From contig DUNO01000054.1 in NCBI GenBank assembly GCA_012839295.1, positions 1-64,000 on the forward strand: 64,000 nucleotides of DNA, given 5' to 3'. The notes beneath the pieces are model-generated. The model was not told where the DNA came from. It worked only from the letters and a program-made list of their open reading frames with translations, and searched no databases. This document shows, piece after piece, positions 3,083-46,489 of this stretch. Within the stretch, counting starts at the first letter, position 1. Each line of letters opens with the position of its first letter. A program made the position numbers and the translations under genes. This DNA comes from Clostridiales bacterium. Lineage in GTDB: Bacteria > Bacillota > Clostridia > Lachnospirales > Lachnospiraceae.

Positions 3083-3652
3083 TTACTCCTTTACGATAAT
3101 ATCCATATCCACCACTCTCTGTACATCCTTCGTCTTGGAGGATTCCAGCTCTACCGGTGCAACTCTGTAAAACAGTGATAATTTGTAGGCCTTATTTGGC
3201 ACGGACCATACCTTCTGCTTTTCCTCCATGCTCATCTGCAGCAATTCGATATTCAGGGCATAATCATTGTCCTTGGTGATGGGCACATATGTGGACGCAT
3301 CCAGCAGGCTATGGTCTGACAGGATCTGGACCACCCTTCCCAAGAGCTTTTGCTCCTCCGCTGAACGGAACTTGACATCCCCGTTGGAATAGGCCGTAAT
3401 CATATAATACAGGGACAGAAAGGTCGACGGATACTTTTGTGACCTTGAATCCACGTTGACCATGGTGCTGCGCCTGACCTCCTCGCACTCCCTGATGTCA
3501 TATAGATACAGGCCAACCATGATATCCCCCTTGTCCTCCGGGCTGCACAGTCCAATACTTTCCGGATTCAGCACCTCTCCCGGAACCATATGATCCCGGA
3601 GCAATTTCACCAGCGCCGTCCCAACCTCAGAAATCACCGTATAATTCGCCAT
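3083..3652 (-). CDS. DUF4255 tail terminator/cap protein (Afp16/Pvc16-like)
   Basis: 189 residues beginning MANYTVISEVGTALVKLLRDH, with the DUF4255 core IGLCSPEDKGDIMVGLYLYDI and the later YYMITAYS segment before a helical part. In Afp and PVC particles this family caps the end of the tube and sheath and fixes tail length. AGGGAGG precedes the ATG by about 10 nt. It follows the MORN-protein gene after a 152-nt gap that holds a degenerate duplicated sequence. Of all the genes here, this one with the AAA+ ATPase most clearly separates an eCIS-type system from a prophage tail. Confidence 0.88.
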   Translation of the reverse strand: MANYTVISEVGTALVKLLRDHMVPGEVLNPESIGLCSPEDKGDIMVGLYLYDIRECEEVRRSTMVNVDSRSQKYPSTFLSLYYMITAYSNGDVKFRSAEEQKLLGRVVQILSDHSLLDASTYVPITKDNDYALNIELLQMSMEEKQKVWSVPNKAYKLSLFYRVAPVELESSKTKDVQRVVDMDIIVKE

Positions 3653-3743: not shown

Positions 3744-3810
3744 TTGCACTGATTTTTTCCACTTATATCAATTTCTTTCGTTGCACTAATCCTTTTCGGC
3801 CATATCAATT
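3744..3810. repeat. Degenerate tandem duplication downstream of the MORN gene
   Basis: Two 30-bp copies (3744-3773 and 3781-3810), each starting TTGCACT and ending ATATCAATT, are separated by 7 bp. The second overlaps the 3' end and TGA stop of the MORN gene. This suggests that a local duplication of the gene end created the present spacer. Confidence 0.5.
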
Positions 3811-5814: not shown

Positions 5815-5902
5815 GCTTACCCCCGCGCCTTTCACTTTTTGATGACCTGTCCAAAAGCGAATAGGCCTTAATAAATAGTTTGAAATGACTTCTTTCAATC
5901 TT
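5815..5902 (-). promoter_or_regulatory. Conserved hairpin leader, copy A (before the MORN gene)
   Basis: About 85 nt running up to the ATG at 5814. It holds an imperfect hairpin (TGAAAG...TTTCA), the constant string TTTATTAAGGCCTATTC, and a second hairpin in which CTTTTGG pairs with CAAAAAG around GACAGGTCAT, then GTGAAAG and the ribosome-binding region. A near-identical block precedes the gene starting at 27058. The block is tied to the start codon in both cases, which suggests shared post-transcriptional control or a shared origin. Confidence 0.6.
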
Positions 5903-6942: not shown

Positions 6943-8721
6943 TCACACATCCCTGACTACGACAAATGCAGACGCCTTCATCTCCGGATGGTCCATACTT
7001 TCTGCAATCACTTCAAATACCCCCGGCTTATTGGGCGCAGTGTACATTCCATTCTCATCGATGGTTCCGCCGCCCTCTTCCTTGATGCGCCAGGTTACCC
7101 GGCTTTGGGCTTCTTTACCCACCACTGCTTCAAAATAATGGTTCTCGCAGATGAACAGGTTCAACAGGTCAGGCTTGATATTCATCGTATCCTGCTCCCT
7201 TTCATAGACAACCCTGCTGTTATCCTTGACGGCCATCCAGTGGACCTTGACCTGCCGTACACCGGTCAGCTCCAGACATTTCATTCCTATGACAAAGCTG
7301 CCCTTCTGTACATCGGCCCTGGCTGCAAGCTCTGTCCTGACATGGCCCTCGGGTGCGTCAAAAATATCCTGGGCTCCAAATATGATGCTGCTGTCCTCAC
7401 CCAGTCCGGTGGCTTCACCGAGGACGATATTAACGGTTCCAAGTCCCAGCCCATGTACAATCTCCTGGCTGAAAAATCTCTGGCCTACCGTGCCTCCGAT
7501 CCCAAGATCAAGAATGGCAGTTCCCGCAGCTATCTGTCCTTGCATATGCCCTGCCCCGCTGCCCGGCAGCATCTTTCCCGCTCCCGCTTCCTTCTGGATA
7601 ATCCTGCCCCTTCCTTCTTCCTCCTTTAAGAGCAAGCTGGTGATGACAGATGCCAGGGGATTACTCAATATGTACTGCTTGAAGGGCATAGGCTCCACCT
7701 CGTCGATTACATAGCTGGTGCCTGCCTTGATTACAGCAATCCTGGCAAGGTAAATCCCCTGCTGGTAGGAATTCTTTGCAATATCCTCCATGGCGGTCTG
7801 ATAATAATTCTGGATGATGGCCTGGGTAATATCCCCTTCTATAATCCGTACCGTCTGGGAGGACTTAGCCGCAGCCTCTGCCTTCCTGCCTCCGATGGTG
7901 AGGGAGAAGCTGCCTTCCTCCACGCCCACCTGGCCGTCAATATCCCTGACTGCCGTCGCCTTTAAGGGGATAGTCAAGGTGTATGAACCGGCCTTCTCAT
8001 ACTGGCTTTCATCAAATACGATATCCACCGTATCAGGGGCCTTCCCCCCATTGTCCCCGTCCGCTCCCTGCACGCAGGTTAAGCCAAGCTTGTATTTAAA
8101 GGAAAAGGGCTTTGTCTGCCCCAGGTTTTCTACAATGACCTTCATCTGGAAGGGGGCGTTGCTCCCGGCGTATCTTGGAAGGACCTGGCGGACCCGGATC
8201 CTGTTTCCCGAATAAACCACCTTGCTGGATTCATAAAACCGCTCCTCCGAAAGGACATCATTTTGCGGCTCCTCCGTCGATAAATAGAGATGGTAGCCTT
8301 CCGCATACTTATTGTGCTGGGCGCCGTCCGTTCCATTAAAGGTTGAATTTGTTATGCTATGTACCGGCTCCTTTTCTGTCTCCTCATATTCCACGCACAG
8401 ATATAGATGGGAGCCGCTTCTCTCCTGGTCGTTATAATTATCGAAGCCGTCCAGCATGGCAAGCTTCTTCGTCACCGGTGTGTCCAGTACGATTTCCCTT
8501 CCACAAAAATCCAGGGCAAAGCCCTTTTCAATGGACACGGTGCTATCATCCACCGCGATCACATTCATGCCGCAGACCACGCCACAGCCATGGATGAACC
8601 GGTTTATCATTCTCCGTTTATCATTCACATACCTCTGCTCCGTGTCAAAATCATCCACACTGAGCAGCTTTCCATAAAAATACCTGTTCCTCTCGAAGGG
8701 AAAATACTTCATACTTTTCAC
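6943..8721 (-). CDS. Baseplate-associated accessory protein with C-terminal Ig-like (BIG2-type) domain
   Basis: 592 residues from a GTG with AGGTGG 8 nt upstream; a GTG at 8733 and an ATG at 8712 are less well placed. The N-terminus contains RNRYFYGKLLSVDDFDTEQRY followed by HGCGVVCG and GFALDFCGREI, a pattern that recurs next to baseplate genes in bacterial contractile injection systems but has no defined function known to me. The middle part (about 190-290) resembles beta-sandwich modules (YTLTIPLKA). The last 80 residues end in GGTIDENGMYTAPNKPG, typical of bacterial Ig-like group 2 domains. It lies directly after the gpI-like gene. Inferred role: a baseplate-edge protein, receptor-binding or docking. 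It lacks both a signal peptide and a membrane segment. Confidence 0.6.
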   Translation of the reverse strand: MKSMKYFPFERNRYFYGKLLSVDDFDTEQRYVNDKRRMINRFIHGCGVVCGMNVIAVDDSTVSIEKGFALDFCGREIVLDTPVTKKLAMLDGFDNYNDQERSGSHLYLCVEYEETEKEPVHSITNSTFNGTDGAQHNKYAEGYHLYLSTEEPQNDVLSEERFYESSKVVYSGNRIRVRQVLPRYAGSNAPFQMKVIVENLGQTKPFSFKYKLGLTCVQGADGDNGGKAPDTVDIVFDESQYEKAGSYTLTIPLKATAVRDIDGQVGVEEGSFSLTIGGRKAEAAAKSSQTVRIIEGDITQAIIQNYYQTAMEDIAKNSYQQGIYLARIAVIKAGTSYVIDEVEPMPFKQYILSNPLASVITSLLLKEEEGRGRIIQKEAGAGKMLPGSGAGHMQGQIAAGTAILDLGIGGTVGQRFFSQEIVHGLGLGTVNIVLGEATGLGEDSSIIFGAQDIFDAPEGHVRTELAARADVQKGSFVIGMKCLELTGVRQVKVHWMAVKDNSRVVYEREQDTMNIKPDLLNLFICENHYFEAVVGKEAQSRVTWRIKEEGGGTIDENGMYTAPNKPGVFEVIAESMDHPEMKASAFVVVRDV

Positions 8722-8745
8722 TGGCAATTCCACCTTTCGTTATTA

Positions 8746-15860: not shown

Positions 15861-16646
15861 TCAGTTTATCTTTACCATGGCACCCTTTAATTCCACGAGT
15901 GCGCTGGCCTGTGACTTAATGTTTCCTGAACTTTTCAGCTCCAGCATGCTGTTGCCCTCCAGCGAAGCATTCTGCCCCTTCAGCTTTATGGCCTGGGTTG
16001 CGCTGATTTCAATATTATCTGCCTCGAGGGAAGCCTTTTTTCCGGTGCCGTCCAGGGTCAGCATATCCTTATCCCCTGCGGAAAAGACCAGTTTTTTCTT
16101 CGCCTTTAAGCGGATCTCCCCATTCTTGCAGTCCATGCTGAGGAGGTTCTCTCCCTTTTCATCCTGGATTGATATTTTCTCTTCCTTATCCTCTAATTGG
16201 ATTGTCAGCTTTTTATTTGTCCGGATCCGGATCTTTTCTGCATCCTTTGTTTCATCAAAAAGGATCTCGTGGCCTCCTTTGGTCCTGATGCATTTAATGG
16301 AATTATCCTTGTTTGCCACTTCCTTTGGTATGGTATCCACATCATTCCACAGGCAGCCCAGGACAACCGGCTTATTAATGTTTCCCAGATTAAAGCCCAG
16401 CACTACCTCCGTATTGATCTCCGGGATAAAATAGTCCCCGTATTCCTTTCCGCAGTATGGCTGCATCACCCTGACCCATTCCGAGGAGGTCTTTCCCTCC
16501 TCCCCGAAGAAGAATTCTACCCTGACCTTTCCGGGGAAGTTTTCATTATAATTCTCTTTCACGACTCCGGTCATAATGCTAAGGCAGCCGGAGCTATGGG
16601 ACCGTCTGCTTCCCTGCTGCTGTACCAATAAATCACTGATATCCAT
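15861..16646 (-). CDS. gp5/VgrG-like spike protein (baseplate assembly protein V)
   Basis: 261 residues. The N-terminal OB-fold (about 20-110) shows GVVKENYNENFPGKVRVEF, then EWVRVMQPYCGKEYGDYFIPEINTEVVLGF and PVVLGCLWND, typical of gp5/gpV. The C-terminal half is a repetitive beta-helix with recurring ILFDE, LTIQLEDK, ISIQDEKG and IRLKAKKKLVF-like strands that should form the trimeric needle under the PAAR-like tip. No lysozyme or toxin domain is attached. Its start overlaps the stop of the hub gene (TAATG), so the two halves of a VgrG-like protein are made in step from separate genes. Confidence 0.9.
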   Translation of the reverse strand: MDISDLLVQQQGSRRSHSSGCLSIMTGVVKENYNENFPGKVRVEFFFGEEGKTSSEWVRVMQPYCGKEYGDYFIPEINTEVVLGFNLGNINKPVVLGCLWNDVDTIPKEVANKDNSIKCIRTKGGHEILFDETKDAEKIRIRTNKKLTIQLEDKEEKISIQDEKGENLLSMDCKNGEIRLKAKKKLVFSAGDKDMLTLDGTGKKASLEADNIEISATQAIKLKGQNASLEGNSMLELKSSGNIKSQASALVELKGAMVKIN

Positions 16647-17716
16647 TACTTAAATCCCCCTATGGTAAAATTCGTCGTAAAGCCGCTTTCACTAAAGCTG
16701 TGGGTCACTGTTTTTAAATAATAGGTTTTATTGACGCTCTCATCCAGCTTCTCTATTTTTAAGTATCTTCCCGGGCAAAGCTCCGGAAGCCCGATGCAGG
16801 TGCCCCCTCCCTGCTGTGAGCTCTTCATCAGCTGCTCCAGCTCATAGGCCGCGATATTTTCCGCCTTTGTAGCATCAATGGTATCCGAGATCTTCAACTC
16901 CCGGACAGGCTTCTTTGATAGGGCTGACGCTGACTTCGTATCGCTTTTTGCATCCTTCTTCGCTGTTACCGGCTTATTGGTCTGCTCGTCATGCCCATAG
17001 ATCTGTATCACCTCATCCACATAGGTGGTATTGCATTGGAAGGAGATCAGCCCGCTGCCTGGGCTTAGGGTTGTGATTTCCTTGTCCGGATCGTGCATTT
17101 TACGAAAATATGCCGTATCCCCAAGGACAAAAAACTCACTGTTGGTCTTGGGGCAAAGCTCCTTTAAGATATATTCCAGGTCGGAATCATTTTGGATGAA
17201 GGGATCCTCCTGCTCTGGTGTGTCCGTCACCTTAACCTTGGACACCTTGCTGTAGATCTCCATGATTTTACTGACCACCGCCGAAGCCTTCTTTAAGTCC
17301 TTATGTGTCACCTCCCGGATATTGCGCCCCATCAGCGCACGGACATCCGTCGCGACTACGGAGATTTTTGGTATTTCACCAAATTCCATATTTAAGTTTG
17401 CCACATATCCCTGGAACACCTTTGTCAGGGAGGAGCCATAGCCCAGCTCCACGGTGAGGACGGCTCCCAGTTTTATGGTGGACTTGACATTCCCATAGAA
17501 GGCAGTGCTTTTCAGGTCATATACATTGATGACCGTAAAATCCACACTGCTCGCATTGTCTAAATCAAGGGTAATGCTAACATCCGTAATCCCTACCTTT
17601 AAGGTGGATGCAATATCACTTGTGCCGACCTTAATTTTCATGGCGGGCACAAGAAAGTTACTGTACGTTTTCGCCAGGGCACTAAAGGTGCTGCTGTCCG
17701 TCAATAAATTCCCCAC
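16646..17716 (-). CDS. gp27/gpD-like baseplate hub protein
   Basis: 356 residues from a GTG with GGAGG 9 nt upstream. The sequence has the late-control-D/gp27 layout: ITDVSITLDLDNASSVDFTV, then LGAVLTVELGYGSSLTKVFQGYV, then VVATDVRALMGRN, then YILKELCPKTNSEFFVLGD, and a final TFSESGFTTNF-like strand (VTHSFSESGFTTNF). It forms the trimeric hub that holds the spike at the end of the tube. It overlaps the spike gene by one base in TAATG. Confidence 0.87.
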   Translation of the reverse strand: MGNLLTDSSTFSALAKTYSNFLVPAMKIKVGTSDIASTLKVGITDVSITLDLDNASSVDFTVINVYDLKSTAFYGNVKSTIKLGAVLTVELGYGSSLTKVFQGYVANLNMEFGEIPKISVVATDVRALMGRNIREVTHKDLKKASAVVSKIMEIYSKVSKVKVTDTPEQEDPFIQNDSDLEYILKELCPKTNSEFFVLGDTAYFRKMHDPDKEITTLSPGSGLISFQCNTTYVDEVIQIYGHDEQTNKPVTAKKDAKSDTKSASALSKKPVRELKISDTIDATKAENIAAYELEQLMKSSQQGGGTCIGLPELCPGRYLKIEKLDESVNKTYYLKTVTHSFSESGFTTNFTIGGFK

Positions 17717-17773: not shown

Positions 17774-18415
17774 CTATATGGCAGGAAGCTTGATGATCTG
17801 TCCCGGCGAAATGTCCAGGGGATTCATAATCCCATTCTCTTTTGCGATGACACGCCACATTTTTGCCGAACCATATTCCTTATATGCAAAATTCCAAAGC
17901 TGTTCCCCTTCGTGGACCGTCCTGAATTTCGTCCTGTCCGGAGATTCAAAGGGTGATTTCCTCTTTGCCTTCGTGATATCAAATACAGACTTGAAGGTGA
18001 CGTCAAGCTTTGCCCGGACCGGCATGCCATCGGATAAAAACATGGTAAAGCTCTGCTTCACATCCGTAATCACTCCCTTAAAGCTTAAGGAGGACCAGGA
18101 AAAGGTCACTACCGGCGGCCGGTGCAAATCGCCCTTGATATAGGTCAGCTCTACAATCTTCTGTGTCTTCTTGGTAACATCCGTCCCGCTTTCGGATAAT
18201 TTTAATACTTCCGGCGGTTCATAGGTATCAAAAATCAGCGTCATATTCAAGGTCTGGGCCGTGCCTGATATGTACTGGGTAATGGGTCCGTCCAGCCCCG
18301 GCACATTCTTATCCGCATAATTGGCACCCTCGGAAATATTGTACTCTGCCGGATTAAACTGCACCTCTATGTTGGTGTTGTCCTCCAGAATCAATTTCGC
18401 CTTGACTAATCCCAT
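17774..18415 (-). CDS. CIS tube-initiator/baseplate protein with LysM domain (Afp7-like)
   Basis: 213 residues. The N-terminal domain (1-150) starts MGLVKAKLILEDNTNIEVQFNPAEYNIS and continues YISGTAQTLNMTLIFDTY, the pattern of the contractile-injection-system tube-associated domain. The C-terminal 50 residues form a LysM-like module (GEQLWNFAYKEYGSAKMWRVIAKENGI...LDISPGQIIKLP). Afp7/gp53-like proteins link hub and wedges, and their LysM may contact peptidoglycan during assembly. AGGAGG precedes the ATG by about 8 nt. It lies between the giant repeat protein and the hub gene. Confidence 0.88.
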   Translation of the reverse strand: MGLVKAKLILEDNTNIEVQFNPAEYNISEGANYADKNVPGLDGPITQYISGTAQTLNMTLIFDTYEPPEVLKLSESGTDVTKKTQKIVELTYIKGDLHRPPVVTFSWSSLSFKGVITDVKQSFTMFLSDGMPVRAKLDVTFKSVFDITKAKRKSPFESPDRTKFRTVHEGEQLWNFAYKEYGSAKMWRVIAKENGIMNPLDISPGQIIKLPAI

Positions 18416-18427
18416 GGCATCAACCTC

Positions 18428-21400
18428 CTACAATCCTTTTCTAAGCCTTGCAACAAATAGTAGCCTTTCTATCTTCTTCATAATATCCCTGGTGACCTGG
18501 TCCATATCAATCCTGGCCTGTGCTCCTTTGTCCGTGGAAAGCTGCCGCTTCATTTCCTCCATGGACTGCTTCTGTGCCTGCATGGTTTCCTTCAGCTTTT
18601 TGAGCTCCTTCTTCTGGAGGCCAAGCTCCTGGGCACTTTCCTTATTTCTCTGGTTGGAATGGTTCATCTGGACCTGCTCTGTCACAATATATTCATTGAC
18701 CAGCTTTCTTACATTCTCCTCCTGGACTGCCCCAGGCTTGCCCTGCTTATGGGTTAGTCCGGCTGCCTGGCGTAACTCCAGCGGTTGCCCAGTAGCTGCA
18801 TCCCTTCCCCCCTGGCTTCCCTGCGGCTTCAAAAGTTCCTGCTGTCCCATAGGATTCTGTTGTCCCATGTGGGTTTGCTGTCCCATGTGATTCTGTTGTC
18901 CTATATAATTCTGCTCTCCTATATGATTCCACTGCTTCAGGGATCCTTCCTGCAGTGTTCTCTTGACCAGCCTTGTTTGGAGCAATATATTCCTCTCCAT
19001 CAGATCCTGGTGGATAATGTCCTTGGCCAAGGTTTTTATAACCGGCCTAAGTCGCCTCGGAAAGGTGTCCTTTTCCTGCTCCAGGCTAAGCTCATTATGT
19101 ACTTTATTTGTTCGCCCCAGAATCCCAAGGCTTTGAATCAGAGCCTGGCCTCGCACACCGTCTGGAGCACTGCTTTGTTCCAGGGTCCTTCCAAGCCTTA
19201 GGATCATCTCCGGTTCCAGCATTTGTTCTTGCCTGTGGGTATTCTCCCGCTCTATACCTCTTACTTGCTCCAGGATTCCTTCTCTCCCTATGAGCTTTAC
19301 CTGTTCCAGGATCATCTCCTTTTCCAGAACCTTTTCCTTCTCCAGGATCCTTTCTTTTTCCAGAATCCTTTCTTTCTCCAGAATCTTTTCTTTCTCCAGG
19401 ATCCTTTCCTTTTCCAGAGCCCTTTCTTTTTCCAGAACCCTTTCTTTTTCCAGAACCCTTTCCTGTTCTCTTGCTTCTTCCTGAATTCTACCCTGTTCTA
19501 TGCCTTTTGCCTGTTCCAGGGTTTTCTCCTGATCTATGAGCCTGGCTTCTTCCAGGGTTCCTTTCTGTCCCTTGTTCCCTTCCCGCTCTGCACTTTTTGC
19601 CCTATCCAGGCTTTTCTCCTGCCTCAGGATCATTTCTGCCTCAGGGATTTTTCTTCCTTCTGTGATGCCCGCTTGTTCCGGCATCCCCTCCGGCTCCATA
19701 GCTCTTGCCCGCGCATGAGCCCGTTCCTGTTCCCAGGTGCTTTCCTTTACCGGAAGATTTTCCTGCTCCAAGATCTCTGCCAGCTCCAGAATCCTTCTTT
19801 GCTCCATGCCACTTTCCCCTGAGCGTCCTTCCTTCCCCTGGCTCTTTTCCATCTCTAAGCCTTGCTGCCTACCTTTGGGCAGTCTGGAATAGGCTTCTTC
19901 TTTTCTATATTGGTAATTCCTGATTTCTTCAACTTCAATTAAATTATTTGATACAAGGGCTTCAAAAAGCGACGGCTCCTTCCTTAACAGAACCTCCATC
20001 AGGCGGATGGTATCCTCCCGGCTCATGGACTTAATCCTGTCCATCATTTTATCCTTTTGGGATAAATGCTCCTCCGGCTTTCCGGTCTCCGGGGCTAAGG
20101 ATCCATCGGTTGCTTCCTGCGGTAGAAGTCCTTCCTGTTTTGCCAGAGCCACAACCTCACTTTGGAACTCCCCGGAACTATTTTTCAGAAAATCAAGAAA
20201 ATCCTCTCTACGGAGGAGTAATCTGCGATCCGTCTCCATCTGTTCCAGAAACTCCTTAAACTCCTCGGCTGAGATCTTCCAGCGATTCAATTTCTCAATG
20301 AATTCCTTTTGCCTGCTGCCCTCAGAAAACACCTGGCCTAATGCATGGAGTAACGTATTCCGGCTGGCCGGATCCAGTATTCCAATCCTTAATTGCATTC
20401 CTAATTCATGCTGCTGTTCTGTGGGTATCCCTAATTGCCCGATGATTGCGGCAAGCTTCTCTTCTCCCTGGAAGGATCCTTCCCTTTTATAAATCAGGTC
20501 AGCCACGAGATTGCTGCGGTCAATATAAATCGCTGTATCCGCTCCCCTGCCTTCTTCCCTCAGCTCCGGTGTTCTTACCTCCGGCTCCAGGGGAAAATTA
20601 TAGCTGCTAAACAACCTCGCATATTCCCCGAAGTCACCCTCATTCCATGCCACATCCTCTATGCCAGTCTTTCTTGCGCCAATATTCTCCACATAATTAC
20701 GATTCCTTAAGGCTTTCTCCTGTTCCACACTTAACCTGATTTGTCCGGGCCGGGCATCTTCTTCTCTATATTGATAATTCCCTGTTTCTTCAACTTCAAT
20801 TAATTTATTTGATATAAGAACTTCAAAAAGAGACGGCTCTTTTTCCAGCAGGAGTTCTATCAGGCGAAGGGTATCTTCACTTCCCATTGACTGGAATCCA
20901 CTCACTATTTTATCCTTTTTTGAGCGATGGGCAGATTCCCCTTGTGTTCCAGCCTCCGAAACTGATGTCCCATCTACCACTTCCCGGGAAAGCAGTCCTT
21001 CCTTCTTTGCCAAGTATGCAAGCTCCCTCTGGAGCTTCCTTGGACTGTCCTTGAGGAACTTAATAAAATCCTCTCTATGAAAAACTATCCTGCTATCCAC
21101 CGCCATCCGTTCCAGAAACTGCTTAAAATCTCCGGTTGAGATCTGCCGGCGGTTTAACTCCTCAATAAAGCCCTTTAACTTTCCGTCCTCGGAAAACACC
21201 TGGCCTAATATATGGAGCAACAGCTTCCGGCTGACAGGATCCAGCATTCCAAGTCCTGATTGCATTCCCAATTCATTCTGCTTCTCTGCGAACATTTCCA
21301 GTTGCCCGATGATTGCAGTAAGCTTCTCCTCCGGCTGGAGGGATCCCTCTCTTTTGTATATCAGATCTGCCACAGGGTGGCTGTAGTCAAAATAAATATC

Positions 21401-22519
21401 CGAAGCAGCTCCATTACCTTTTTTCCCTTGCTCCTGTAATCTTGTATCCTGTGGCCTTAACCCCCGTGATCCTGGATCTTGTAATCCTGCCTCTGGCTCC
21501 AGAAGGAAATGATAGCTACGGAACAGCCTCACATATTCCTCAAATCCATCCTCTACCCGGGGCATGCCGGCTTTTTCTTCTCCTGCCTGGAGATCCACAA
21601 CCATATGTCCGGCAGCCATATTTTTTTCTTCTATATTCCTTGTTTCTGTATTCCTTATTTCTGCATTCTTTGTTTCTGTATTCCCTATTCCCGTATTCCT
21701 TATTTCTGCATTCCTTACTTCTGGATTCTTTGTTTCTGCATTCCTTGTTTCTGTATCTCTTGTTTCTGCATTCCTTGTTTCTGCATTCCTTGTTTCTGCA
21801 TTCCTTGTCTCTGGATTCCTTATTTCTGGATTCCTTGTCTCTGTATTCCTTGTTTCTGCATTCCTTGTTTCTATATTCTTTGTTCCTATATTTTCTATTC
21901 CTATATTTTTTATCTCATAATTTCCATCCTCATAGTTCCCAGGATAGCTTCTTTCTTGAATTTCCCGAATGTTGTCCCTTATCCTATCCTGCCTCTTATG
22001 CAGGCTTACCTCGGATACTTGTTTTACCGCATGCCTTTGCTCCTCGGACAGGAGCTGCCGGTCCGTTGCCTGAAAGCGCTGCATCTGCTCCTCTAATATC
22101 TCCTGGAGCTTTTCCCGGTTTGCCCTATCCTTTGTCTCCCTGACCAGGCGGTAAATATTATTGATATATTGGTACCCCTTGCCGTTTGATTGCTTCAGTT
22201 GGTTTAGGTAGTTCCCAAGAATTTTTCTCATATTAACCAGGTACATCTCCCTGTTGACCGTCTGCCCCTCATATAATTCCTGAAAATTATAGGCCAGCAG
22301 CAGCTTTAAGGAAAGATATACTGGGCTGTTCTCCAGCGTATTTTGCCCCTCTTCATGGTTTAGCTTCAAATAGGTCAGGGCGATTCCGTGAAAAAAATAT
22401 TGTCCTCTTCTATTATATTTTCCAATAATCTGGCCGGCAAAGCCCATATCCGTGTTCATTGCCAGTTCATTACCAGTCTCTTTTATTTGGTTATTCCGAT
22501 TAAGAGGTTTTATCACCAT
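18428..22519 (-). CDS. Giant multi-repeat protein of the injection system (unrecognised; possible ruler or scaffold)
   Basis: 1363 residues with no recognised family. Layout: a conserved-looking helical N-terminus (1-195); about 19 pentapeptides of the type ETRNA/T/P (about 203-299, 15-bp DNA repeats); two copies of a roughly 260-residue helical module (about 326-594 and 629-880, each containing VADLIYKREGS and LIEVEE..NYQYR); a long Glu/Arg/Lys-rich helix that includes eight hexapeptides such as ILEKER (about 1018-1068); five MGQQN/T-like pentapeptides (about 1197-1227); and a coiled-coil C-terminus. No membrane span or signal. It occupies the slot between tube protein 2 and the LysM protein, where a tape-measure or tube-loading function would fit. 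Every repeat unit is a multiple of 3 bp, so copy-number change keeps the frame. A length ruler, an inner-tube cargo or a scaffold are all possible; function is unknown. Confidence 0.75.
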   Translation of the reverse strand: MVIKPLNRNNQIKETGNELAMNTDMGFAGQIIGKYNRRGQYFFHGIALTYLKLNHEEGQNTLENSPVYLSLKLLLAYNFQELYEGQTVNREMYLVNMRKILGNYLNQLKQSNGKGYQYINNIYRLVRETKDRANREKLQEILEEQMQRFQATDRQLLSEEQRHAVKQVSEVSLHKRQDRIRDNIREIQERSYPGNYEDGNYEIKNIGIENIGTKNIETRNAETRNTETRNPEIRNPETRNAETRNAETRNAETRDTETRNAETKNPEVRNAEIRNTGIGNTETKNAEIRNTETRNIEEKNMAAGHMVVDLQAGEEKAGMPRVEDGFEEYVRLFRSYHFLLEPEAGLQDPGSRGLRPQDTRLQEQGKKGNGAASDIYFDYSHPVADLIYKREGSLQPEEKLTAIIGQLEMFAEKQNELGMQSGLGMLDPVSRKLLLHILGQVFSEDGKLKGFIEELNRRQISTGDFKQFLERMAVDSRIVFHREDFIKFLKDSPRKLQRELAYLAKKEGLLSREVVDGTSVSEAGTQGESAHRSKKDKIVSGFQSMGSEDTLRLIELLLEKEPSLFEVLISNKLIEVEETGNYQYREEDARPGQIRLSVEQEKALRNRNYVENIGARKTGIEDVAWNEGDFGEYARLFSSYNFPLEPEVRTPELREEGRGADTAIYIDRSNLVADLIYKREGSFQGEEKLAAIIGQLGIPTEQQHELGMQLRIGILDPASRNTLLHALGQVFSEGSRQKEFIEKLNRWKISAEEFKEFLEQMETDRRLLLRREDFLDFLKNSSGEFQSEVVALAKQEGLLPQEATDGSLAPETGKPEEHLSQKDKMMDRIKSMSREDTIRLMEVLLRKEPSLFEALVSNNLIEVEEIRNYQYRKEEAYSRLPKGRQQGLEMEKSQGKEGRSGESGMEQRRILELAEILEQENLPVKESTWEQERAHARARAMEPEGMPEQAGITEGRKIPEAEMILRQEKSLDRAKSAEREGNKGQKGTLEEARLIDQEKTLEQAKGIEQGRIQEEAREQERVLEKERVLEKERALEKERILEKEKILEKERILEKERILEKEKVLEKEMILEQVKLIGREGILEQVRGIERENTHRQEQMLEPEMILRLGRTLEQSSAPDGVRGQALIQSLGILGRTNKVHNELSLEQEKDTFPRRLRPVIKTLAKDIIHQDLMERNILLQTRLVKRTLQEGSLKQWNHIGEQNYIGQQNHMGQQTHMGQQNPMGQQELLKPQGSQGGRDAATGQPLELRQAAGLTHKQGKPGAVQEENVRKLVNEYIVTEQVQMNHSNQRNKESAQELGLQKKELKKLKETMQAQKQSMEEMKRQLSTDKGAQARIDMDQVTRDIMKKIERLLFVARLRKGL
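19320..19466 (-). repeat. 18-bp repeats encoding (I/V/A)LEKE(R/K) hexapeptides
   Basis: Eight successive 18-bp units inside the giant gene encode VLEKER/ILEKEK-type hexads. The hexad spacing differs from the heptad of ordinary coiled coils and resembles charged single-helix (ER/K) segments. Confidence 0.75.
21625..21915 (-). repeat. 15-bp repeats encoding ETRN(A/T/P) pentapeptides
   Basis: About 19 tandem 15-bp units inside the giant gene, with the consensus GAAACAAGAAATGCA on the coding strand and point differences among copies. They encode a hydrophilic, charged pentapeptide array that is open to slippage without frameshift. Confidence 0.8.
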
Positions 22520-22533
22520 CAAATCACCCGTCC

Positions 22534-23010
22534 CTAAAATAATTGCAGATTAGTACGATCACAGGTCGTATAGCTGACCTCAAAGGTTTCAATTAAGATA
22601 TTTCCGGCATTTGCATCTACATCCCCGACCTCCCATCTGGTCACTACACAGTCACTTACATGATAGGTCTGTACCGGAAAGCTTTTTTCATTCAGCATGA
22701 TCACGGTAATTCCCAGGGGAATCGCGACACCGGGCTTCATCCGGGTCAGAACCGGGCTCCAGGCCTGCAGGCCTCTTTCGAAGCGGATCGTTCTCCTCTC
22801 CTTCTTCGGGACAGCCAGCATCACGGCGCTGTCATTTATGCCGCCCTCCACAAAGGATTCACTGTCAATATCCTGTTCAAAGCCGCTCACCTTTGTAAAG
22901 GAAAGCTTCAGCACCCCAATGAACACCAGGAAGCGGCTGTTCCTTACTAATTTATTATGGTTATCAAATAATTTATTATAACTGTCAAGTAAGTTTCCCA
23001 ATGCGTCCAT
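22534..23010 (-). CDS. Inner tube protein 2 (Afp5/gp19-like)
   Basis: 158 residues with the tube-protein pattern: FLVFIGVLKLSFTKVSGFEQDID, then ESFVEGGINDSAVMLAVPKKER, then FERGLQAWSP, and a C-terminal ILIETFEVSYT strand. It belongs to the T4 gp19-like/Hcp-like tube family. Compared with tube protein 1 it has an extra N-terminal segment of about 20 residues. In Afp-like particles the second tube paralogue usually forms the first ring on the hub. AAGGAG precedes the ATG, and the gene lies 12 nt after the DUF6760-like gene. Confidence 0.85.
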   Translation of the reverse strand: MDALGNLLDSYNKLFDNHNKLVRNSRFLVFIGVLKLSFTKVSGFEQDIDSESFVEGGINDSAVMLAVPKKERRTIRFERGLQAWSPVLTRMKPGVAIPLGITVIMLNEKSFPVQTYHVSDCVVTRWEVGDVDANAGNILIETFEVSYTTCDRTNLQLF

Positions 23011-23197: not shown

Positions 23198-23569
23198 CTA
23201 TTGTCCGGCTTCCATAAAATTTACCGGTACGCTGATCTCCTTCCCGCAATGGGGGCAGATGCTCTGGTAGTAAGGCGTTTCCATGGTATTAATCCTCTGG
23301 TATAAATCCTGGAGGAAGGCCAGGTCCATGGTGAACAGCTTTTCAATCGTCTTTGTATCCACCGCCGGAAGGGCTCCCAGCTTTGTAACGACGCGGGCCA
23401 GTAAAATAATAGTCAAATATCCGGGATTTTGCTGCACCCTGGGATCCTTCAGCGGCAATATCTCATCACCCGCATTTGCCAGCCTCATGGTTCCCTCCTT
23501 ATGTAATGTTCCCGAATCATCCAGGTATCCCCTGGGTAACTCAAAATGATATTCTGTCTGAAATGCCAT
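23198..23569 (-). CDS. Small tail-assembly-chaperone-like protein with CxxC motif
   Basis: 123 residues: MAFQTEYHFELPRGYLDDSGTLHKEG, then MRLANAGDEI and DPRVQQNPGYLTIILLARVV, and a C-terminal ICPHCGKEISVPV. Proteins of this layout, a beta-rich N-terminus plus one CPHC zinc-ribbon-like half, sit between tube genes in many eCIS loci and resemble tail assembly chaperones. There is only one Cys pair, so metal binding would need dimerisation or a partner. GGAGGGAAAGG lies upstream of the ATG. Next comes the DUF6760-like gene, coupled by a 2-nt gap. Confidence 0.7.
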   Translation of the reverse strand: MAFQTEYHFELPRGYLDDSGTLHKEGTMRLANAGDEILPLKDPRVQQNPGYLTIILLARVVTKLGALPAVDTKTIEKLFTMDLAFLQDLYQRINTMETPYYQSICPHCGKEISVPVNFMEAGQ

Positions 23570-23700: not shown

Positions 23701-24126
23701 TTATGAAACTCTTGTCATTCCTTCGTGGGCGATTTCCAGGGACTCTACCGCAACCTCGGATGCCGTTGCATTGAAATCCGGTGCCGTATACTTGGTAGGC
23801 CATGCGTTGATAATCTGCCAAGAGGCAGCATCGTCGCCGGTAACGCTGATCAGGGTGATGGTCAGCGTCTTTCTTTGTACATCCCCTTCTACTCCAGCGA
23901 CCATCCATTGATATAGTGCATCGGTGTCGGCAACGCCTTGCTTTAAGGTTATATTGCCATATTTCTTTAGTCCGGGAAGCTTCATCGGTGTCTGGACCAT
24001 ATCACCTTCCCTGTATTCAATCACGTCAATGGATGCATCAAAGCCCGATACTTCTGAGAATCCGCCGGCCTCGATTCCATCAATTTCAACCTTATATCTG
24101 AATTTACCATGTGGGTAACCAGCCAT
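23701..24126 (-). CDS. Inner tube protein 1 (Afp1/gp19-like, Hcp-like)
   Basis: 141 residues with the family pattern KFRYKVEIDGIEAGGFSEVSGFDASIDVIEYREGD, then LPGLKKYGNITLKQGVADT, and a C-terminal VESLEIAHEGM. It should form the stacked hexameric rings of the inner tube. AAAGGAGTG precedes the ATG. It follows the sheath gene by 66 nt and is followed by a strong hairpin. Together with the sheath this should be the most abundant product of the cluster. Confidence 0.92.
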   Translation of the reverse strand: MAGYPHGKFRYKVEIDGIEAGGFSEVSGFDASIDVIEYREGDMVQTPMKLPGLKKYGNITLKQGVADTDALYQWMVAGVEGDVQRKTLTITLISVTGDDAASWQIINAWPTKYTAPDFNATASEVAVESLEIAHEGMTRVS

Positions 24127-24192: not shown

Positions 24193-25935
24193 TTAAACCG
24201 CGTCACTTGTCTTCTGAGAAATTCTAAAGATTACGAATTCGGCAGGTTTCACAGGTGCAACGCCAATAATGCATACCAGACGTCCGTTATCAATATCATC
24301 CTGGCTCATCGTATTTCTGCCAATGTTAACAAAGAAAGCCTCAGCTGCCGCATTGCCAGCCAGGTATCCGTTCCTCCATAACCCGGTCAGGAACACGTCA
24401 ATGGTTCTCTTAACACGGACCCAGAGTACCTCGTCATTCGGCTCAAACACAGCCCAGTTCGTATTTGCCTTGATGGATTCCTCAATAAAGATGAAGAGCC
24501 TTCTGACATTTACATACTTCCAGCTCGGATTGCTGGTGCAGCACCTTGCTCCCCAAACCCTGATGCCCTGTCCGGGGAAGGTACGGATTAGGTTTACGCC
24601 CTTCGGATTTAAGATGTCCTGCTCGCCCTTGTTGAACTGGCAGTCCAGACCCACGCAAGCCCTGACCACTTCATTTGCCGGAGCCTTATGTACGCCACGG
24701 GTATTATCGCTCCTTGCATAAATACCTACGATGGAGCCTGACGGAGGAATCGCAAGATTCTTCTTGTCTAACGGGTCAAAGATCTCCAGCCATGGATGGT
24801 ACAGCGCCGCATAATTGGAATCGAAAATATCACGGTGTGCCATGATATCATCTATCTTCTTTGCTGCCTTCGGCATATCAAGGACCGCAAACCTGCTTCC
24901 CAGGTTCTCGCAATGCGCAACCAGCATCAGCTGCACATTAGGATCTGTAATGCCGGGCACCGCCATGATGGATACTGTGTCATTATCCAGGAATGCCTGG
25001 ATTCCGGTACGCTTTCCGGCGCCGTTATCCGTACCGATAAAATCCGATGCGGCAAGGTTAGCCACGGAGCCATTGGAGCCTCCCGTCAGGGAAACTGCCA
25101 GGAAGGAGCTATTGTCCGCCTCATTTCCAATGATCTGGAGGTAAGGGGGAACGATTCCTTCTGCCTCTTTGCCCATATATTCGGCTTTTACCAGGTCGGA
25201 TTTTGACAGCTTCTTTGTTATATAATTTGCTGCCTCAATGTTGAAGGAGAGATTCTCGTACATTTCAACCTGGTCATCAAATTTGACCTCCAGATTGAAT
25301 TCACAAGTAGTAATCACCTTGTTCGGCAATAAATTCTTATCAACAACATTTTCCTCAAATTCATTCTCAAATTCGATGATGTTGTCCTGGCTCTTAACAA
25401 CCTTGTTATAGACTACCGTCGTCCGTTCTGAGAACATAACGACGTCTCCCGGGTTGAAGCCAACAGAGCTCTTCACCATGTATTTCTTGCCGGTCGGAGT
25501 CTCAATCACCTCCAAAATCTGTGTCTTTGCTTTGCTTGCTGCCGTAACCACGGCACGGATACTGTCGCCCCACATACCGGGATTTTTAGCCGTCAGCTGG
25601 ATAACCGGTGCATCTGCCGACGGTGCATATCCCACGGAAGCCTTTGCATTGGTAGGCGCGACGCGGGCTATGAATGCCCTGGAGCCTCCATTTACAAAGA
25701 AATGCTCCACCGCATAAGCTAAGAAACGGTATTCTGCGAATTCATTCTCGGATAAATAACCACCGTACTTCCTCTTAAAATCCGCAAAATTAGTTACCAG
25801 CTGCGGCAGGCCTTCCACCGGCCCCCGTTCTGCAAGGCCGATAAAGCCTGCTGTACTGGTTCCTACACCTTCCATCGGTTTGCCGCCTGACTCGAACTCT
25901 TCCACATAAACGCCTGGTGATAAATATTCTGCCAT
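24193..25935 (-). CDS. Contractile tail sheath protein (Afp2-4-like)
   Basis: 580 residues starting MAEYLSPGVYVEEFESG, with TAGFIGLAERGP shortly after; both are diagnostic of contractile sheath proteins. The C-terminal part contains the conserved NLIRTFPGQGIRVWGARC and WKYVNVRRLFIFIEESI segments and ends with a beta-strand that reaches into the next ring. Only one sheath gene is present, against three in Afp and PVC. The leader of about 120 nt upstream contains a possible activator site. The ATG follows a short upstream frame by 1 nt. Confidence 0.95.
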   Translation of the reverse strand: MAEYLSPGVYVEEFESGGKPMEGVGTSTAGFIGLAERGPVEGLPQLVTNFADFKRKYGGYLSENEFAEYRFLAYAVEHFFVNGGSRAFIARVAPTNAKASVGYAPSADAPVIQLTAKNPGMWGDSIRAVVTAASKAKTQILEVIETPTGKKYMVKSSVGFNPGDVVMFSERTTVVYNKVVKSQDNIIEFENEFEENVVDKNLLPNKVITTCEFNLEVKFDDQVEMYENLSFNIEAANYITKKLSKSDLVKAEYMGKEAEGIVPPYLQIIGNEADNSSFLAVSLTGGSNGSVANLAASDFIGTDNGAGKRTGIQAFLDNDTVSIMAVPGITDPNVQLMLVAHCENLGSRFAVLDMPKAAKKIDDIMAHRDIFDSNYAALYHPWLEIFDPLDKKNLAIPPSGSIVGIYARSDNTRGVHKAPANEVVRACVGLDCQFNKGEQDILNPKGVNLIRTFPGQGIRVWGARCCTSNPSWKYVNVRRLFIFIEESIKANTNWAVFEPNDEVLWVRVKRTIDVFLTGLWRNGYLAGNAAAEAFFVNIGRNTMSQDDIDNGRLVCIIGVAPVKPAEFVIFRISQKTSDAV

Positions 25936-33246: not shown

Positions 33247-33337
33247 TAAAGTAACATTTAATGGAATTTTAGGGGATGAATTTATCGAAAAAAGCTGAGG
33301 AACCACAGCAACACAGCAATGAAAGATGGGTGAGAAT

Positions 33338-35782
33338 ATGAACAGACGATTTGTGGCGGCAATAACCGCTTTTATCCTGCTGTCGACAGTCTGCTTCCCA
33401 ATTCAGACGGCTTACGCAGACGATACTGACGTGGAACAAGAGGGAATTTCCATGCTTTCCGGGGAAGAACCCGGAGCGCTGAATTTTGGAGGGGACGAAG
33501 GACAGTCCTTGACCGGGCCGGATACACCAAATCCTGGGCAACCGGAAGCTGAAGCCGGCTTTTTACAGGAAGCCGGAGCTGATACACAGCAGGAACCGGA
33601 GGATATGCAGCAAGAGCCGGAGGATACACAGCAGGAAGCTCCGCCTCTCGAGGTGTACCGCCTCCACATGGACGACACGGACTTACGGCTCCTGACGGTG
33701 GGTCAAGACCCGGAAACGCTCCAGCTTCCTGAAACAGCCTATGCCGTCTACGGCCGTTTTGACGGTGTGGAATGCGAAATACAGTGGCACTATGATACGA
33801 TTGATCCGCTTACACCGGGACGGCAGCTCCTCACGGGGGATATCCTCCTGCCGGAGGGCTATGTATTTGGAGGGGAACCGCTTGTTGCATCTCTTCCTGT
33901 GCTGGTCTATGCCCCCGGGGGAGGCCCGCTGGTAAAGATCGCTTCCTGCATCGTTTCCAACTCCAACATCATTATTCCATTGGGCACAGACAGAGCCGAG
34001 CTCCCCAGGTTTTTTACACTCTTTGAGGATAAGGCTTTCCTGATCACAGAAGCACAGGATATGTTTTTTTGGCCGATAGAGCTGGATTTGGATCGGATCG
34101 ATCCCAGCGTACTAGGTACATACTATCCCTTCCGCTTAGAGCTGCCGGATGCCCTGGATCTGGGCAACCTTGCCTTCTATACCTTAAGCGTTCATGTGGT
34201 GCCCCAGGACAGAGTAGATTTAAGCGCCATAGGGCTTGATATAACCGGCAGCTATCTTATACAGTGGCTGTATCCTGCCCAAGACCCTATCCTGTGGGTA
34301 TCAGTGGATGACGGAGACTGGCACCCTGTTGAAGAATGGCCTGGTGCTGGGATGTATAACATTTACGGGCGTTTTGTATATAGCGGCAGTGGTGTGACCG
34401 GGCTGGAGCTGGATCCTGATAATTTGTCCACCGGGCATTTCTACCAATTTCAGATACAATATGACGGACAGCGGTTTTCCAACGTGCTAAACCTGGATCT
34501 GGTCAACAATACACTGCCCCGCACCGCCAATGATGTGGGAGGCGACCGCAATGGGGGCGACCGGGAGGAAAATCCGCCATTGGGCGGCGGTGGGACGTTT
34601 CCCCCGGCGGACAGTACGGAAAATGAGCCTCCAAAGGAGGAAGCGCCAGGAAATGATGTGGTACCCGGGAATCCGGAAGGCTCGGATAACGGCGGCCAGA
34701 CAATTCCCCCGCCAGCAACAGAAATACCTGATAACACCAGTAACCCTACCCCTGGTCCGGAAAAGCCATCGGAAGGATCCACCTCTTCAAAGCCGGGGGA
34801 GACATCGGGAGGCTCTGCCTCTTTAAAGCCGGAGACGACACCGGAGGGCTCCGTCTCTTTAAAGCCGGAGGTGACACCGGAGAGCTTTGCCTCTTCAAAG
34901 GCAGGAAAGACAACAGAGGGCTCTGCCTCTTCAAAGACAGGGAAGACAACGGAGGGTTCTGTCTCTTTAAAGCCAGAGATGACACCGGGTGGAGCCGCCT
35001 CTTTAAAGCCGGAGGACACACCGGCCGGCAATGCTTCCGGGTCGAAATCGGAGCAGCCTGCGGGCGCTGTTTTTACGCCTGCGCCAAATGCTGCCAGTAC
35101 TGGTGCGGTAAATACTCCCACGCCGCCGGTACAAACGACGCAAACACCAGCCGGTAGAAAGCAGAACCCCTCTCCCACAGCTCCCTCCGAGTATACGGAT
35201 GCACACGGTGTCACCCTGTTCGGAGACCGTCTTTCTGTAATGGCACAGGCAAATCCTGCCTATGTGTCATTTCTGCGGGATGGGCTTCGGGTTTCGGTTC
35301 CTACCTCATACGTGACAGGCCTTGGGCTGACAGCGGCGGACACCTTTACCGTCACCCTGTACCAGCCGGATGGGGACAGCTTTGTCGTGGGTTTCGCAGT
35401 AAACGGCATCCCTCTGACGGAGGAACTGCCGGAAGCCTTTTCCTTTTGCATCCCCTGGAGCGGGGACGCGGTTTCCTGTTCGATACAGGGCATGGATGCC
35501 ATCAACGCCTCCCTTGATAAAACCGCAGGTACAGCCGATTTCTCCCTGCGCTTTCCAGGAACCTATTCTTTGATACGGGAGGATATCCAATCGGTGCCGG
35601 TAATCCAGCAATCCACCGGCACGCCATCCCTTCCTCCAAGCATCACAGGTAAGGAAGCAGAGGACACCAGAGCGCGGGAGCCCTACTCCGATTCCTGGAT
35701 ACCCGCCGTCCTTGCAGGTCTGACCGGGCTTGCGGCGGCCTCCGCTTTCCTTTTTTGGAGGAAGAAAGGGGGCAAACCATGA
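33338..35782 (+). CDS. Secreted Pro/Ser/Thr-repeat surface protein with C-terminal membrane anchor
   Basis: 815 residues from an ATG with GGGTGA upstream (another ATG at 33326). A signal peptide (about 1-28, ending TAYADD) is followed by an acidic QQEPED repeat stretch, two beta-rich regions (about 100-390), a long low-complexity region (about 395-620) built of Ser-Leu-Lys-Pro-Glu-x-Thr-Pro-type units, a further folded domain (about 625-750), and a C-terminal hydrophobic span with a basic tail (AGLTGLAAASAFLFW then RKKGGKP). No LPxTG is seen, so anchoring is in the membrane, not sortase-linked. The stop overlaps the next start (ATGA). It could be a sensory or adhesive partner of the histidine kinase. 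No family was recognised. Confidence 0.8.
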   Translation: MNRRFVAAITAFILLSTVCFPIQTAYADDTDVEQEGISMLSGEEPGALNFGGDEGQSLTGPDTPNPGQPEAEAGFLQEAGADTQQEPEDMQQEPEDTQQEAPPLEVYRLHMDDTDLRLLTVGQDPETLQLPETAYAVYGRFDGVECEIQWHYDTIDPLTPGRQLLTGDILLPEGYVFGGEPLVASLPVLVYAPGGGPLVKIASCIVSNSNIIIPLGTDRAELPRFFTLFEDKAFLITEAQDMFFWPIELDLDRIDPSVLGTYYPFRLELPDALDLGNLAFYTLSVHVVPQDRVDLSAIGLDITGSYLIQWLYPAQDPILWVSVDDGDWHPVEEWPGAGMYNIYGRFVYSGSGVTGLELDPDNLSTGHFYQFQIQYDGQRFSNVLNLDLVNNTLPRTANDVGGDRNGGDREENPPLGGGGTFPPADSTENEPPKEEAPGNDVVPGNPEGSDNGGQTIPPPATEIPDNTSNPTPGPEKPSEGSTSSKPGETSGGSASLKPETTPEGSVSLKPEVTPESFASSKAGKTTEGSASSKTGKTTEGSVSLKPEMTPGGAASLKPEDTPAGNASGSKSEQPAGAVFTPAPNAASTGAVNTPTPPVQTTQTPAGRKQNPSPTAPSEYTDAHGVTLFGDRLSVMAQANPAYVSFLRDGLRVSVPTSYVTGLGLTAADTFTVTLYQPDGDSFVVGFAVNGIPLTEELPEAFSFCIPWSGDAVSCSIQGMDAINASLDKTAGTADFSLRFPGTYSLIREDIQSVPVIQQSTGTPSLPPSITGKEAEDTRAREPYSDSWIPAVLAGLTGLAAASAFLFWRKKGGKP

Positions 35783-40802: not shown

Positions 40803-40894
40803 ATATTCTAATCTCCTTTTCTCTTTGGACAAGGGAACCGGATCCTTTACAAAGGTATTGAAAGAACCCACAATTGGACCCCATGTCCTTTACT

Positions 40895-44824: not shown

Positions 44825-44880
44825 GTGGACTCCATCCTTTCACTGACCTTTCTTATCCGGGGCAAGCCGAAGCAGTAAAC

Positions 44881-45096
44881 CGCTCCAATAAAGCTGCTTT
44901 ATTTGCCATAAACAAACTGCTGCAATAAGCTGATTGCCTTGTCATGAACAAACTGCTGCAATAAGCCGATTGCCTTGTCATGAACAAACTGCTGTAATAA
45001 GCTGATTGCCTTGCCATGAACAAACTGCAACAATAAGCCGATTGCCTTGCCATGAACAAACTGCTACAATAAACTGATCCCTTGCCATGAATAAGA
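44881..45096. repeat. Six tandem 36-bp repeats between binding-protein and ATPase genes
   Basis: Units start at 44881 (degenerate), 44917, 44953, 44989, 45025 and 45061 (diverged at its end), with consensus CTGCTGCAATAAGC(T/C)GAT then TGCCTTG(T/C)CATGAACAAA. There are no spacers between units and no adjacent cas genes, so it is not a CRISPR. A 12-residue repeat can be read on the minus strand but without a ribosome-binding site. Possible roles are an mRNA stability or decay signal, or a replication-slippage array. Confidence 0.85.
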
Positions 45097-46243: not shown

Positions 46244-46489
46244 AATCCATATCCTCCTAAAATATTTTTTTGGTGCATATGCATACAAGCGTATACAGGC
46301 ACCTGCTATGCCTGCAAGCAGCTGCAGGGGCTTGTATCCTGTACCTTCTGCGATTGCTGTTTGCGTAATCATCATATAAAATTTTTATTTTCCAAACAAT
46401 GCAGATTCTATGGAATATAGTTCAAATTTTTATTTCCGGTACTCTGGGATTACATTATTTTTTTGCAGGGGTTTATTTTTTATAGGTGC

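What the first reader, a model, noticed from the sequence alone, without database searches (positions are those of the whole stretch)
18428..22519. 1363-residue protein with four nested repeat systems in the tape-measure slot
About 19 pentapeptides (15 bp), two roughly 260-residue modules, eight hexapeptides (18 bp) and five further pentapeptides all lie in one protein between tube 2 and the LysM protein. All units are multiples of 3 bp, so copy number can change in frame. If the protein is a ruler, repeat number would set particle length and could vary between strains. Unlike phage tape measures, it is highly charged and has no hydrophobic segments.
Basis: partly seen in the sequence, partly recalled or inferred. 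Interest (0 to 1): 0.82.

Follow-up and report, generated by a model that had tools for sequence, protein, structure and literature searches.

The report
Hypervariable lumen protein of injection machine
Next to the tube genes of a phage-tail-like injection machine in gut and soil bacteria sits a protein whose tail end is conserved while its length swings from about 115 to 2000 residues, largely through repeats, which makes it a good candidate for the machine's missing ruler, although particle length has not been measured.

Summary
The repeats are real. They lie in one minus-strand ORF (18428-22522, 1364 aa from TTG, 1363 from ATG) inside a contractile injection system (CIS) cluster: sheath, tube, tail-assembly chaperone, tube adaptor, this ORF, LysM/Afp7-type protein, hub, spike. 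One detail is wrong: the third array is hexapeptides. In 115 of 116 related clusters that could be read from sheath to hub, the same slot holds such a gene (and the chaperone); the remaining one lacks both. 113 unique complete proteins, 115-1995 aa, share a C-terminal stretch of about 25 residues, predicted helical; some lineages share an N-terminal motif; the middle is hypervariable. In a 73-gene set tandem arrays cover 8.1% of slot-gene bases against 0.18% of neighbouring CIS genes; units differ between lineages and copy number changes between sister genomes. Ends are under strong purifying selection, the middle weaker. In the libraries scanned, no protein of the cluster matches a tape-measure or plug family. 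Best reading: a hub-docked lumen protein at both the plug (Cis6) and tape-measure positions, its repeat-built spacer acting as ruler. Against a strict ruler: members of 115-195 aa, no detectable length compensation, no heptad signal in this protein.

The parts
18428..22522 (-). Slot protein ORF, 1364 aa (1363 from ATG at 22519)
   Evidence: single copy in the genome apart from a self-hit of its repeats
22349..22450 (-). N-terminal motif, aa 25-58 (DMGFAGQIIGKYNRRGQYFFHGIALTYL...)
   Evidence: leave-cluster-out HMM E 7.5e-4
21629..21892 (-). Pentapeptide array, 15-bp units
   Evidence: TRF score 318; 19 units counted
20711..21583 (-). Module 1, aa 314-604
19841..20680 (-). Module 2, aa 615-894
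19295..19468 (-). Hexapeptide array LEKERI, 18-bp units
   Evidence: TRF scores 185 (18 bp) and 227 (54 bp)
18839..18929 (-). Second hexapeptide array (xMGQQN), five 18-bp units
   Evidence: TRF scores 98 (18 bp) and 112 (36 bp)
18431..18508 (-). C-terminal anchor, aa 1339-1364; G1363 invariant and R1361 nearly invariant in 36 representatives
   Evidence: divergent member, not scored by the family HMM
22534..23010 (-). Tube 2 / tube adaptor (Phage_T4_gp19; weak CIS5-type match below cut-off)
23198..23569 (-). Tail-assembly chaperone (phrog_508, E 5.3e-7)
23701..24126 (-). Inner tube protein
24193..25935 (-). Sheath (phrog_23, E 2.1e-69)
17774..18415 (-). LysM protein with CIS_tube domain (Afp7-type)
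15861..17716 (-). Hub and spike genes (16646-17716 baseplate hub; 15861-16646 VgrG-type)

Best explanation
The ORF encodes a hub-docked protein of the tube lumen in a Bacillota contractile injection system. Its extreme C-terminal helix probably sits on the spike/LysM hub, like the C-terminus of phage and diffocin tape measures or the Cis6 plug, and nucleates tube growth with help of the chaperone encoded upstream. The long repeat-built chain N-terminal to it runs up the lumen and, in long members such as this one, works as the length ruler; in-frame repeat gain and loss re-sets its length over evolution. Shown here: position, co-occurrence with the chaperone, conserved C-terminus, constrained ends with a freer middle, repeat turnover. 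Inferred: docking on the hub, lumen location, ruler function.
For: Gene order sheath, tube, chaperone, tube adaptor, slot, LysM, hub. Of 116 unique clusters readable from sheath to hub on one stretch, 115 have chaperone and slot, 0 have only one, 1 (L073) has neither. C-terminal anchor: HMMs built without the tested sequence cluster find 81 of 101 at E<1e-3 (22 of 32 clusters) and 89 of 101 at E<0.01, against 0 of 1767 other genes at E<1e-3; on 12 later proteins, some of them close to the training set, 9 at E<1e-3 and 11 at E<0.1. AlphaFold of the 182-aa member L063 (overall pLDDT 67.9) gives helices 101-152 and 158-179, the latter the anchor; ten-residue block means there 73-93. Tandem arrays in 41 of 73 slot genes (17758 of 219276 bases) against 18 of 425 neighbouring CIS genes (1011 of 565029). 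Omega in the 6 closest of 11 sister pairs: N-terminus 0.06-0.13, middle 0.34-0.54, C-terminus 0.07-0.28, sheath 0.01-0.05. In 23 genomes of one Paenibacillus genus the sheath is always 577 aa and the tube 144, the slot 1475-1995. In 7 sister pairs 15 of 31 indels of 8 aa or more, 501 of 768 residues, overlap arrays that cover on average 7.6% of the gene. In the libraries scanned no other protein of the cluster hits a tape-measure family; CIS_TMP has no match over cut-off in the genome. Diffocin: TMP C-terminal residues 795-817 anchored on the spike (PMC11329794 section 11).
Against: No particle or length data for any member were seen. Clusters with slot proteins of 115-195 aa (9 of 113 under 200 aa) would imply very short tubes if length alone ruled. 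Net length change in 11 sister pairs is about what random-sign indels give (mean ratio 0.75 against 0.85, SD 0.16; 26% of nulls as low). Heptad-like periodicity is at background in this protein (0.05; control means 0.04-0.09; family median 0.11), and some relatives are Pro- or Gly-rich. The N-terminal motif is not general: 15 of 101 at E<0.1 leave-cluster-out, 1 of 12 in the later set. The C-terminal HMM does not score the window protein itself; it joins through L033 (25% over 176 aa at the N-terminus) and alignment A6. One later protein (L249) lacks the conserved Gly (E 0.22). In an earlier half-split test one true non-slot gene, the L128 tube adaptor, also scored 6.3e-5. No convincing PDB hit.
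Confidence: 0.58

Rival explanations
1. Giant Cis6-type plug without ruler function: only the C-terminal hub-plugging helix matters; the N-terminal extension fills the lumen or merely drifts in length, and tube length is set otherwise, as it must be in Streptomyces CIS where no tape measure gene is recognised.
For: Same slot as cis6 between the tube adaptor and the LysM protein (afp5-6-7 order recalled); Alg6 is a trimer with a C-terminal helix in the tube-exposed spike cavity and no particles form without it (PMC8894135 section 11). Members of 115-195 aa retain the C-terminus (the 144-aa L079 only poorly). No detectable length compensation. Streptomyces particles are uniform at 268 nm with the tape measure gene absent (PMC12237407 passages).
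Against: Omega of 0.34-0.54 in the middle and 0.28 between the window's modules shows some constraint there; co-occurrence with a tail-assembly chaperone suggests a tape-measure-like client. DUF5908, by recall the plug family, has no match over cut-off.
Confidence: 0.24
2. Cargo or effector carried in the lumen (as the TMP-related effectors Tme and Sle1): the variable middle is payload.
For: TMP-related effectors exist in Streptomyces CIS (PMC11126660, PMC13277306 passages); hypervariability is common in effectors (recalled). Two Firmicutes eCIS toxins, EAT8 and EAT12 (PMC8213781 section 12), could not be tied to or separated from this slot.
Against: No enzymatic or toxin family in 36 representatives (Pfam hits at E<0.001 only Collagen and Vts1, one member each), so no DUF4157 either; the conserved part is at the C-terminus, where Tme carries its nuclease; repeats and low complexity fill much of the middle in the four relatives read.
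Confidence: 0.1
3. External fibre or cage protein of the particle rather than a lumen protein.
For: One of 36 representatives has a Pfam Collagen hit and single members have weak PHROGs tail-fibre hits (probably L107, judged from its sequence).
Against: A CIS13-type protein, below the curated cut-off, is encoded elsewhere in the cluster (6943-8733); the hits look like low complexity and each concerns one member.
Confidence: 0.04

Closest known systems
Tape measure proteins of phages and R-type bacteriocins (diffocin CD1366)
   Same: Slot after tube and tail-assembly chaperone; conserved C-terminal stretch of about the size (23 residues) that diffocin's TMP anchors on the spike; repeat gain and loss is known for phage TMPs (PMC3271669 abstract)
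   Different: No family match by sequence, no hydrophobic segments (0 of 73), no consistent heptad signal, repeat units differ between lineages, length 115-1995 aa
Afp14 / Cis14, Pfam CIS_TMP (PF19268)
   Same: Candidate length regulator of a CIS
   Different: No match over cut-off in this genome and none in 36 slot proteins; different gene position (that of afp14 recalled)
Cis6 plug (Alg6/Afp6)
   Same: Same slot between tube adaptor and LysM protein; C-terminal helix; small members exist
   Different: Alg6 is small; 99 of 113 slot proteins are 400 aa or longer; DUF5908 has no match over cut-off
FliK / SctP (YscP) rulers of flagella and injectisomes
   Same: Conserved C-terminal part plus a stretch whose deletions shorten the structure, with disordered or flexible parts (PMC6972891 passages)
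   Different: Unrelated machine, no matching Pfam domain; analogy only
Tme and Sle1, TMP-related CIS effectors of Streptomyces
   Same: Large proteins of Gram-positive CIS compared with tape measures by their authors
   Different: Here no effector domain, no DUF4157, no TM-like segments

Membership tests
Phage/bacteriocin tape measure protein | Gene between tube plus tail-assembly chaperone and the hub genes | tested here: met
   115 of 116 clusters
Phage/bacteriocin tape measure protein | Length of the protein sets tail length | not testable with these tools
   no particle data
Phage/bacteriocin tape measure protein | C-terminal helix anchored on spike | tested here: inconclusive
   stretch conserved and predicted helical in one short member; docking not tested
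Phage/bacteriocin tape measure protein | Largely helical coiled coil | tested here: inconclusive
   periodicity at background in the window protein, raised in part of the family; module model pLDDT 49, unusable
Phage/bacteriocin tape measure protein | Sequence match to a described TMP family | tested here: not met
   none named tape measure in Pfam and PHROGs (window, further single members, 36 representatives) or NCBIfam (8 proteins)
CIS_TMP (PF19268, Afp14 type) | Match over the curated cut-off | tested here: not met
   best E in the genome 0.146, on another contig
Cis6 plug (Alg6/Afp6) | Gene between tube adaptor and LysM protein | tested here: met
   the afp5-6-7 order itself is recalled
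Cis6 plug (Alg6/Afp6) | Small protein | tested here: not met
   median 1076 aa, 14 of 113 under 400 aa
Cis6 plug (Alg6/Afp6) | Match to DUF5908 (that this is the plug family is recalled) | tested here: not met
   (best E 0.046, another contig, below cut-off)
TMP-related effectors (Tme/Sle1) | DUF4157 or effector domain, or TM helices | tested here: not met

The most novel reading that the evidence does not exclude
Plug and tape measure are two ends of one protein family: in this CIS lineage the Cis6-position protein ranges from a 115-residue plug to a 1995-residue plug-plus-ruler, its spacer being rebuilt from different repeats in different lineages, so that tube length is an easily evolvable trait. 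This would also explain why a tape measure seems to be missing from some Gram-positive and haloarchaeal CIS clusters.
Probability: 0.4. Interest if true: 0.8.

Novelty: new variant of a known kind. Interest (0 to 1): 0.66.

Why it matters
Streptomyces and haloarchaeal CIS were reported without a recognisable tape measure (PMC12237407, PMC10066040, PMC11566945 passages), so how their length is fixed is open. This family gives a concrete candidate in Bacillota, with natural length variants (1475-1995 aa within one Paenibacillus genus, sheath constant at 577 aa) on which length control can be tested directly by electron microscopy.

Tried and rejected
Length clamp: tested whether sister-pair indels compensate; not significantly. 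Coiled-coil ruler: hydrophobic periodicity is not raised in the window protein. N-terminal motif as a family-wide signature: fails held-out tests, kept only as a feature of some lineages. Fold search: both AlphaFold models judged too weak (pLDDT 49 and 67.9), so no fold search was made. PDB by sequence: only chance-level hits. NCBIfam accessions that I guessed for CIS6/CIS14 were unrelated families. Weak library hits set aside: HTH_Tnp_Mu_2 below cut-off and phrog_5070, unknown function, E 1.1e-4 over aa 991-1086 around the LEKER repeats for the window protein; penta_MxKDx below cut-off for L053; 16 PHROGs families, one member each. Period divisible by 3 as evidence: dropped, control arrays have it too.

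Rows dropped: of 101 loci including the window's own, 12 had no chaperone in the stretch held (several because the contig ends; L067 and L071 have sheath and tube followed by other genes), 2 ended before the slot, 11 slots were truncated and 3 were duplicates, leaving 73. 28 more made 101 and 12 more 113; L243, L247, L250, L251 and L257 ended too early and L246 duplicates L093. L209 (994 aa, like L208) was not put on the list and L207 has an insertion; both then scored as C-anchor 'decoys' and were removed with the last two genes of 12 truncated loci, taking the decoys from 1793 to 1767. 23 of the 24 sheath-positive Paenibacillus-genus genomes were analysed; G340 was not fetched. The named-genome scan kept the best 80 of 587 confirmed relatives. 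The 115-of-116 count covers only clusters readable from sheath to hub.

Literature: 10 searches in open-licence PMC only; no listing showed a description of this family, which is weak evidence of absence. Papers were seen as passages, except single sections of PMC11329794, PMC8213781 and PMC8894135 (with passages) and the abstract of PMC3271669.
Full report
Observation. The finding is one minus-strand ORF, 18428-22522. Its repeats are far beyond chance: the 15-bp array scores 318, the best of 200 codon shuffles 79. Two modules (aa 314-604, 615-894) are 56% identical over 274 residues with dN/dS 0.28, so both copies seem to be kept as protein. The third array is hexapeptides, not pentapeptides. 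No 19-residue window is hydrophobic enough for a membrane segment.

Surroundings. On the minus strand the cluster reads: regulators (32988-29498; the first two by their look only), AAA ATPase, a 306-aa unknown, sheath, tube, tail-assembly chaperone (phrog_508), tube adaptor, the ORF, LysM/CIS_tube protein, hub, VgrG-type spike, gp25-type protein, two baseplate proteins (TIGR02243), a CIS12-type and a CIS13-type protein (both below cut-off), an unknown, a MORN-repeat protein, two unknowns (3083-3652, 2309-3076) and a PAAR-type protein. The gaps on the two sides of the ORF are 11 and 12 bp. In the libraries scanned no other protein of the cluster resembles a tape measure, and the genome has no CIS_TMP match over cut-off.

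Relatives. The sheath was found in 27 of 299 same-family genomes, the own one included. The ORF's N-terminal 200 aa were found in 1 of 34 genomes of the genus, the own one. A scan of named genomes gave 80 loci (best 80 of 587) in Lachnospiraceae, Oscillospiraceae, Paenibacillus, Brevibacillus, Cohnella, Fusibacter and others. With a Paenibacillus genus (24 of 30 genomes with sheath), a second genus (19 of 38) and an order-wide draw (28 of 392, partly the same genomes) this gave 113 unique complete slot proteins of 115-1995 aa, median 1076. Of 116 unique clusters readable from sheath to hub, 115 have chaperone and slot. L073, from a metagenome-assembled genome, has neither in the 19.6-kb stretch held, while sheath, tube, tube adaptor, LysM, hub and baseplate genes are there. 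One such case is suggestive only. Sheath relatives outside such clusters exist (e.g. L067, L071: sheath and tube followed by other genes).

Architecture. Across 36 representatives mean column identity is 9%; apart from the start Met only the Gly before the C-terminus (G1363 here) is invariant, with R1361 nearly so; in the 101-protein alignment that Gly is in all 101, but L249 of the later set lacks it. Leave-cluster-out HMMs find the C-terminal anchor in 81 of 101 proteins at E<1e-3 and 89 at E<0.01, and 0 of 1767 other genes at E<1e-3; an earlier half-split hit one tube adaptor (L128, 6.3e-5). A later set of 12 gave 9 at E<1e-3, 2 more at E<0.1, one at 0.22. The window protein is a divergent member that the HMM itself does not score. 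An N-terminal motif (FAxxIxxKY...) is clear in several lineages and in the window (E 7.5e-4) but not general. AlphaFold of the short member L063 shows a long helix and then the anchor helix; the module model is unusable.

Evolution. Arrays are found in 41 of 73 slot genes, all 41 among the 61 of 500 aa or more, against 18 of 425 neighbouring CIS genes, about 45-fold more bases. Units differ between lineages. In 23 genomes of one Paenibacillus genus the sheath is 577 aa throughout, the slot 1475-1995. In 7 sister pairs 15 of 31 larger indels, holding 501 of 768 residues, overlap arrays. Ends are strongly conserved and the middle evolves faster in 6 of 6 pairs tested, the 6 closest of 11. Net length is not detectably held constant (11 pairs).

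Mechanism. The diffocin tape measure (817 residues by its numbering, about 139 nm) has its C-terminal residues 795-817 on the spike and its N-termini at the collar (PMC11329794 section 11). The AlgoCIS plug Alg6 is a trimer with a C-terminal helix in the spike cavity, and without it no particles were found (PMC8894135 section 11). The slot protein lies where both would be encoded and has a matching C-terminal stretch. I therefore think it docks on the hub, starts tube growth with the chaperone, and in its long forms measures the tube. By the diffocin scale the window protein would span about 230 nm; this is arithmetic, not data. The short forms suggest that the C-terminal part has a role without the ruler.

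Verdict. A hypervariable family without a library match at a known position; ruler function likely but untested.

Noticed in passing
L073:9583-11223: CIS cluster in which chaperone and slot protein are both absent from the stretch held, and a regulator stands where the window has its 306-aa gene: tube1, 23 bp, tube2, 46 bp, LysM.
   Followed up: yes
L255, L256 (first 5 kb after the sheath start): Slot proteins of only 115 aa with a recognisable C-terminal anchor (E 0.077 and 0.027), in clusters with normal neighbours.
   Followed up: partly
L043:6965-12069 and L106: Slot region split into two ORFs (146+1500 and 155+1473 aa).
   Followed up: no
L116, L117, L257 tube adaptor genes: The tube adaptor itself is very long (787, 836 and 941 aa) in one clade; L116 and L117 also have two LysM proteins.
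   Followed up: no
L207, between chaperone and tube adaptor: Several extra ORFs (92, 392, 727, 186 aa) inserted, perhaps a mobile element.
   Followed up: no
3805-5898: 697-aa MORN-repeat protein with a hydrophobic segment near its start, at the end of the CIS cluster.
   Followed up: no
44877-45091: Six 36-bp tandem copies between two minus-strand transporter genes (43295-44824 and 45176-46375), outside ORFs of 100 aa or more.
   Followed up: no
60403-60801: About thirteen 30-bp repeats in the N-terminal part of a gene that looks like translation initiation factor IF-2 (name recalled).
   Followed up: no
40657-40833: rliD RNA family match on the + strand, antisense to the 5' end of a minus-strand gene that looks like polynucleotide phosphorylase (38712-40871; name recalled).
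   Followed up: no
34757-35024: 36-bp repeats in a surface-protein-like ORF (33326-35782).
   Followed up: no
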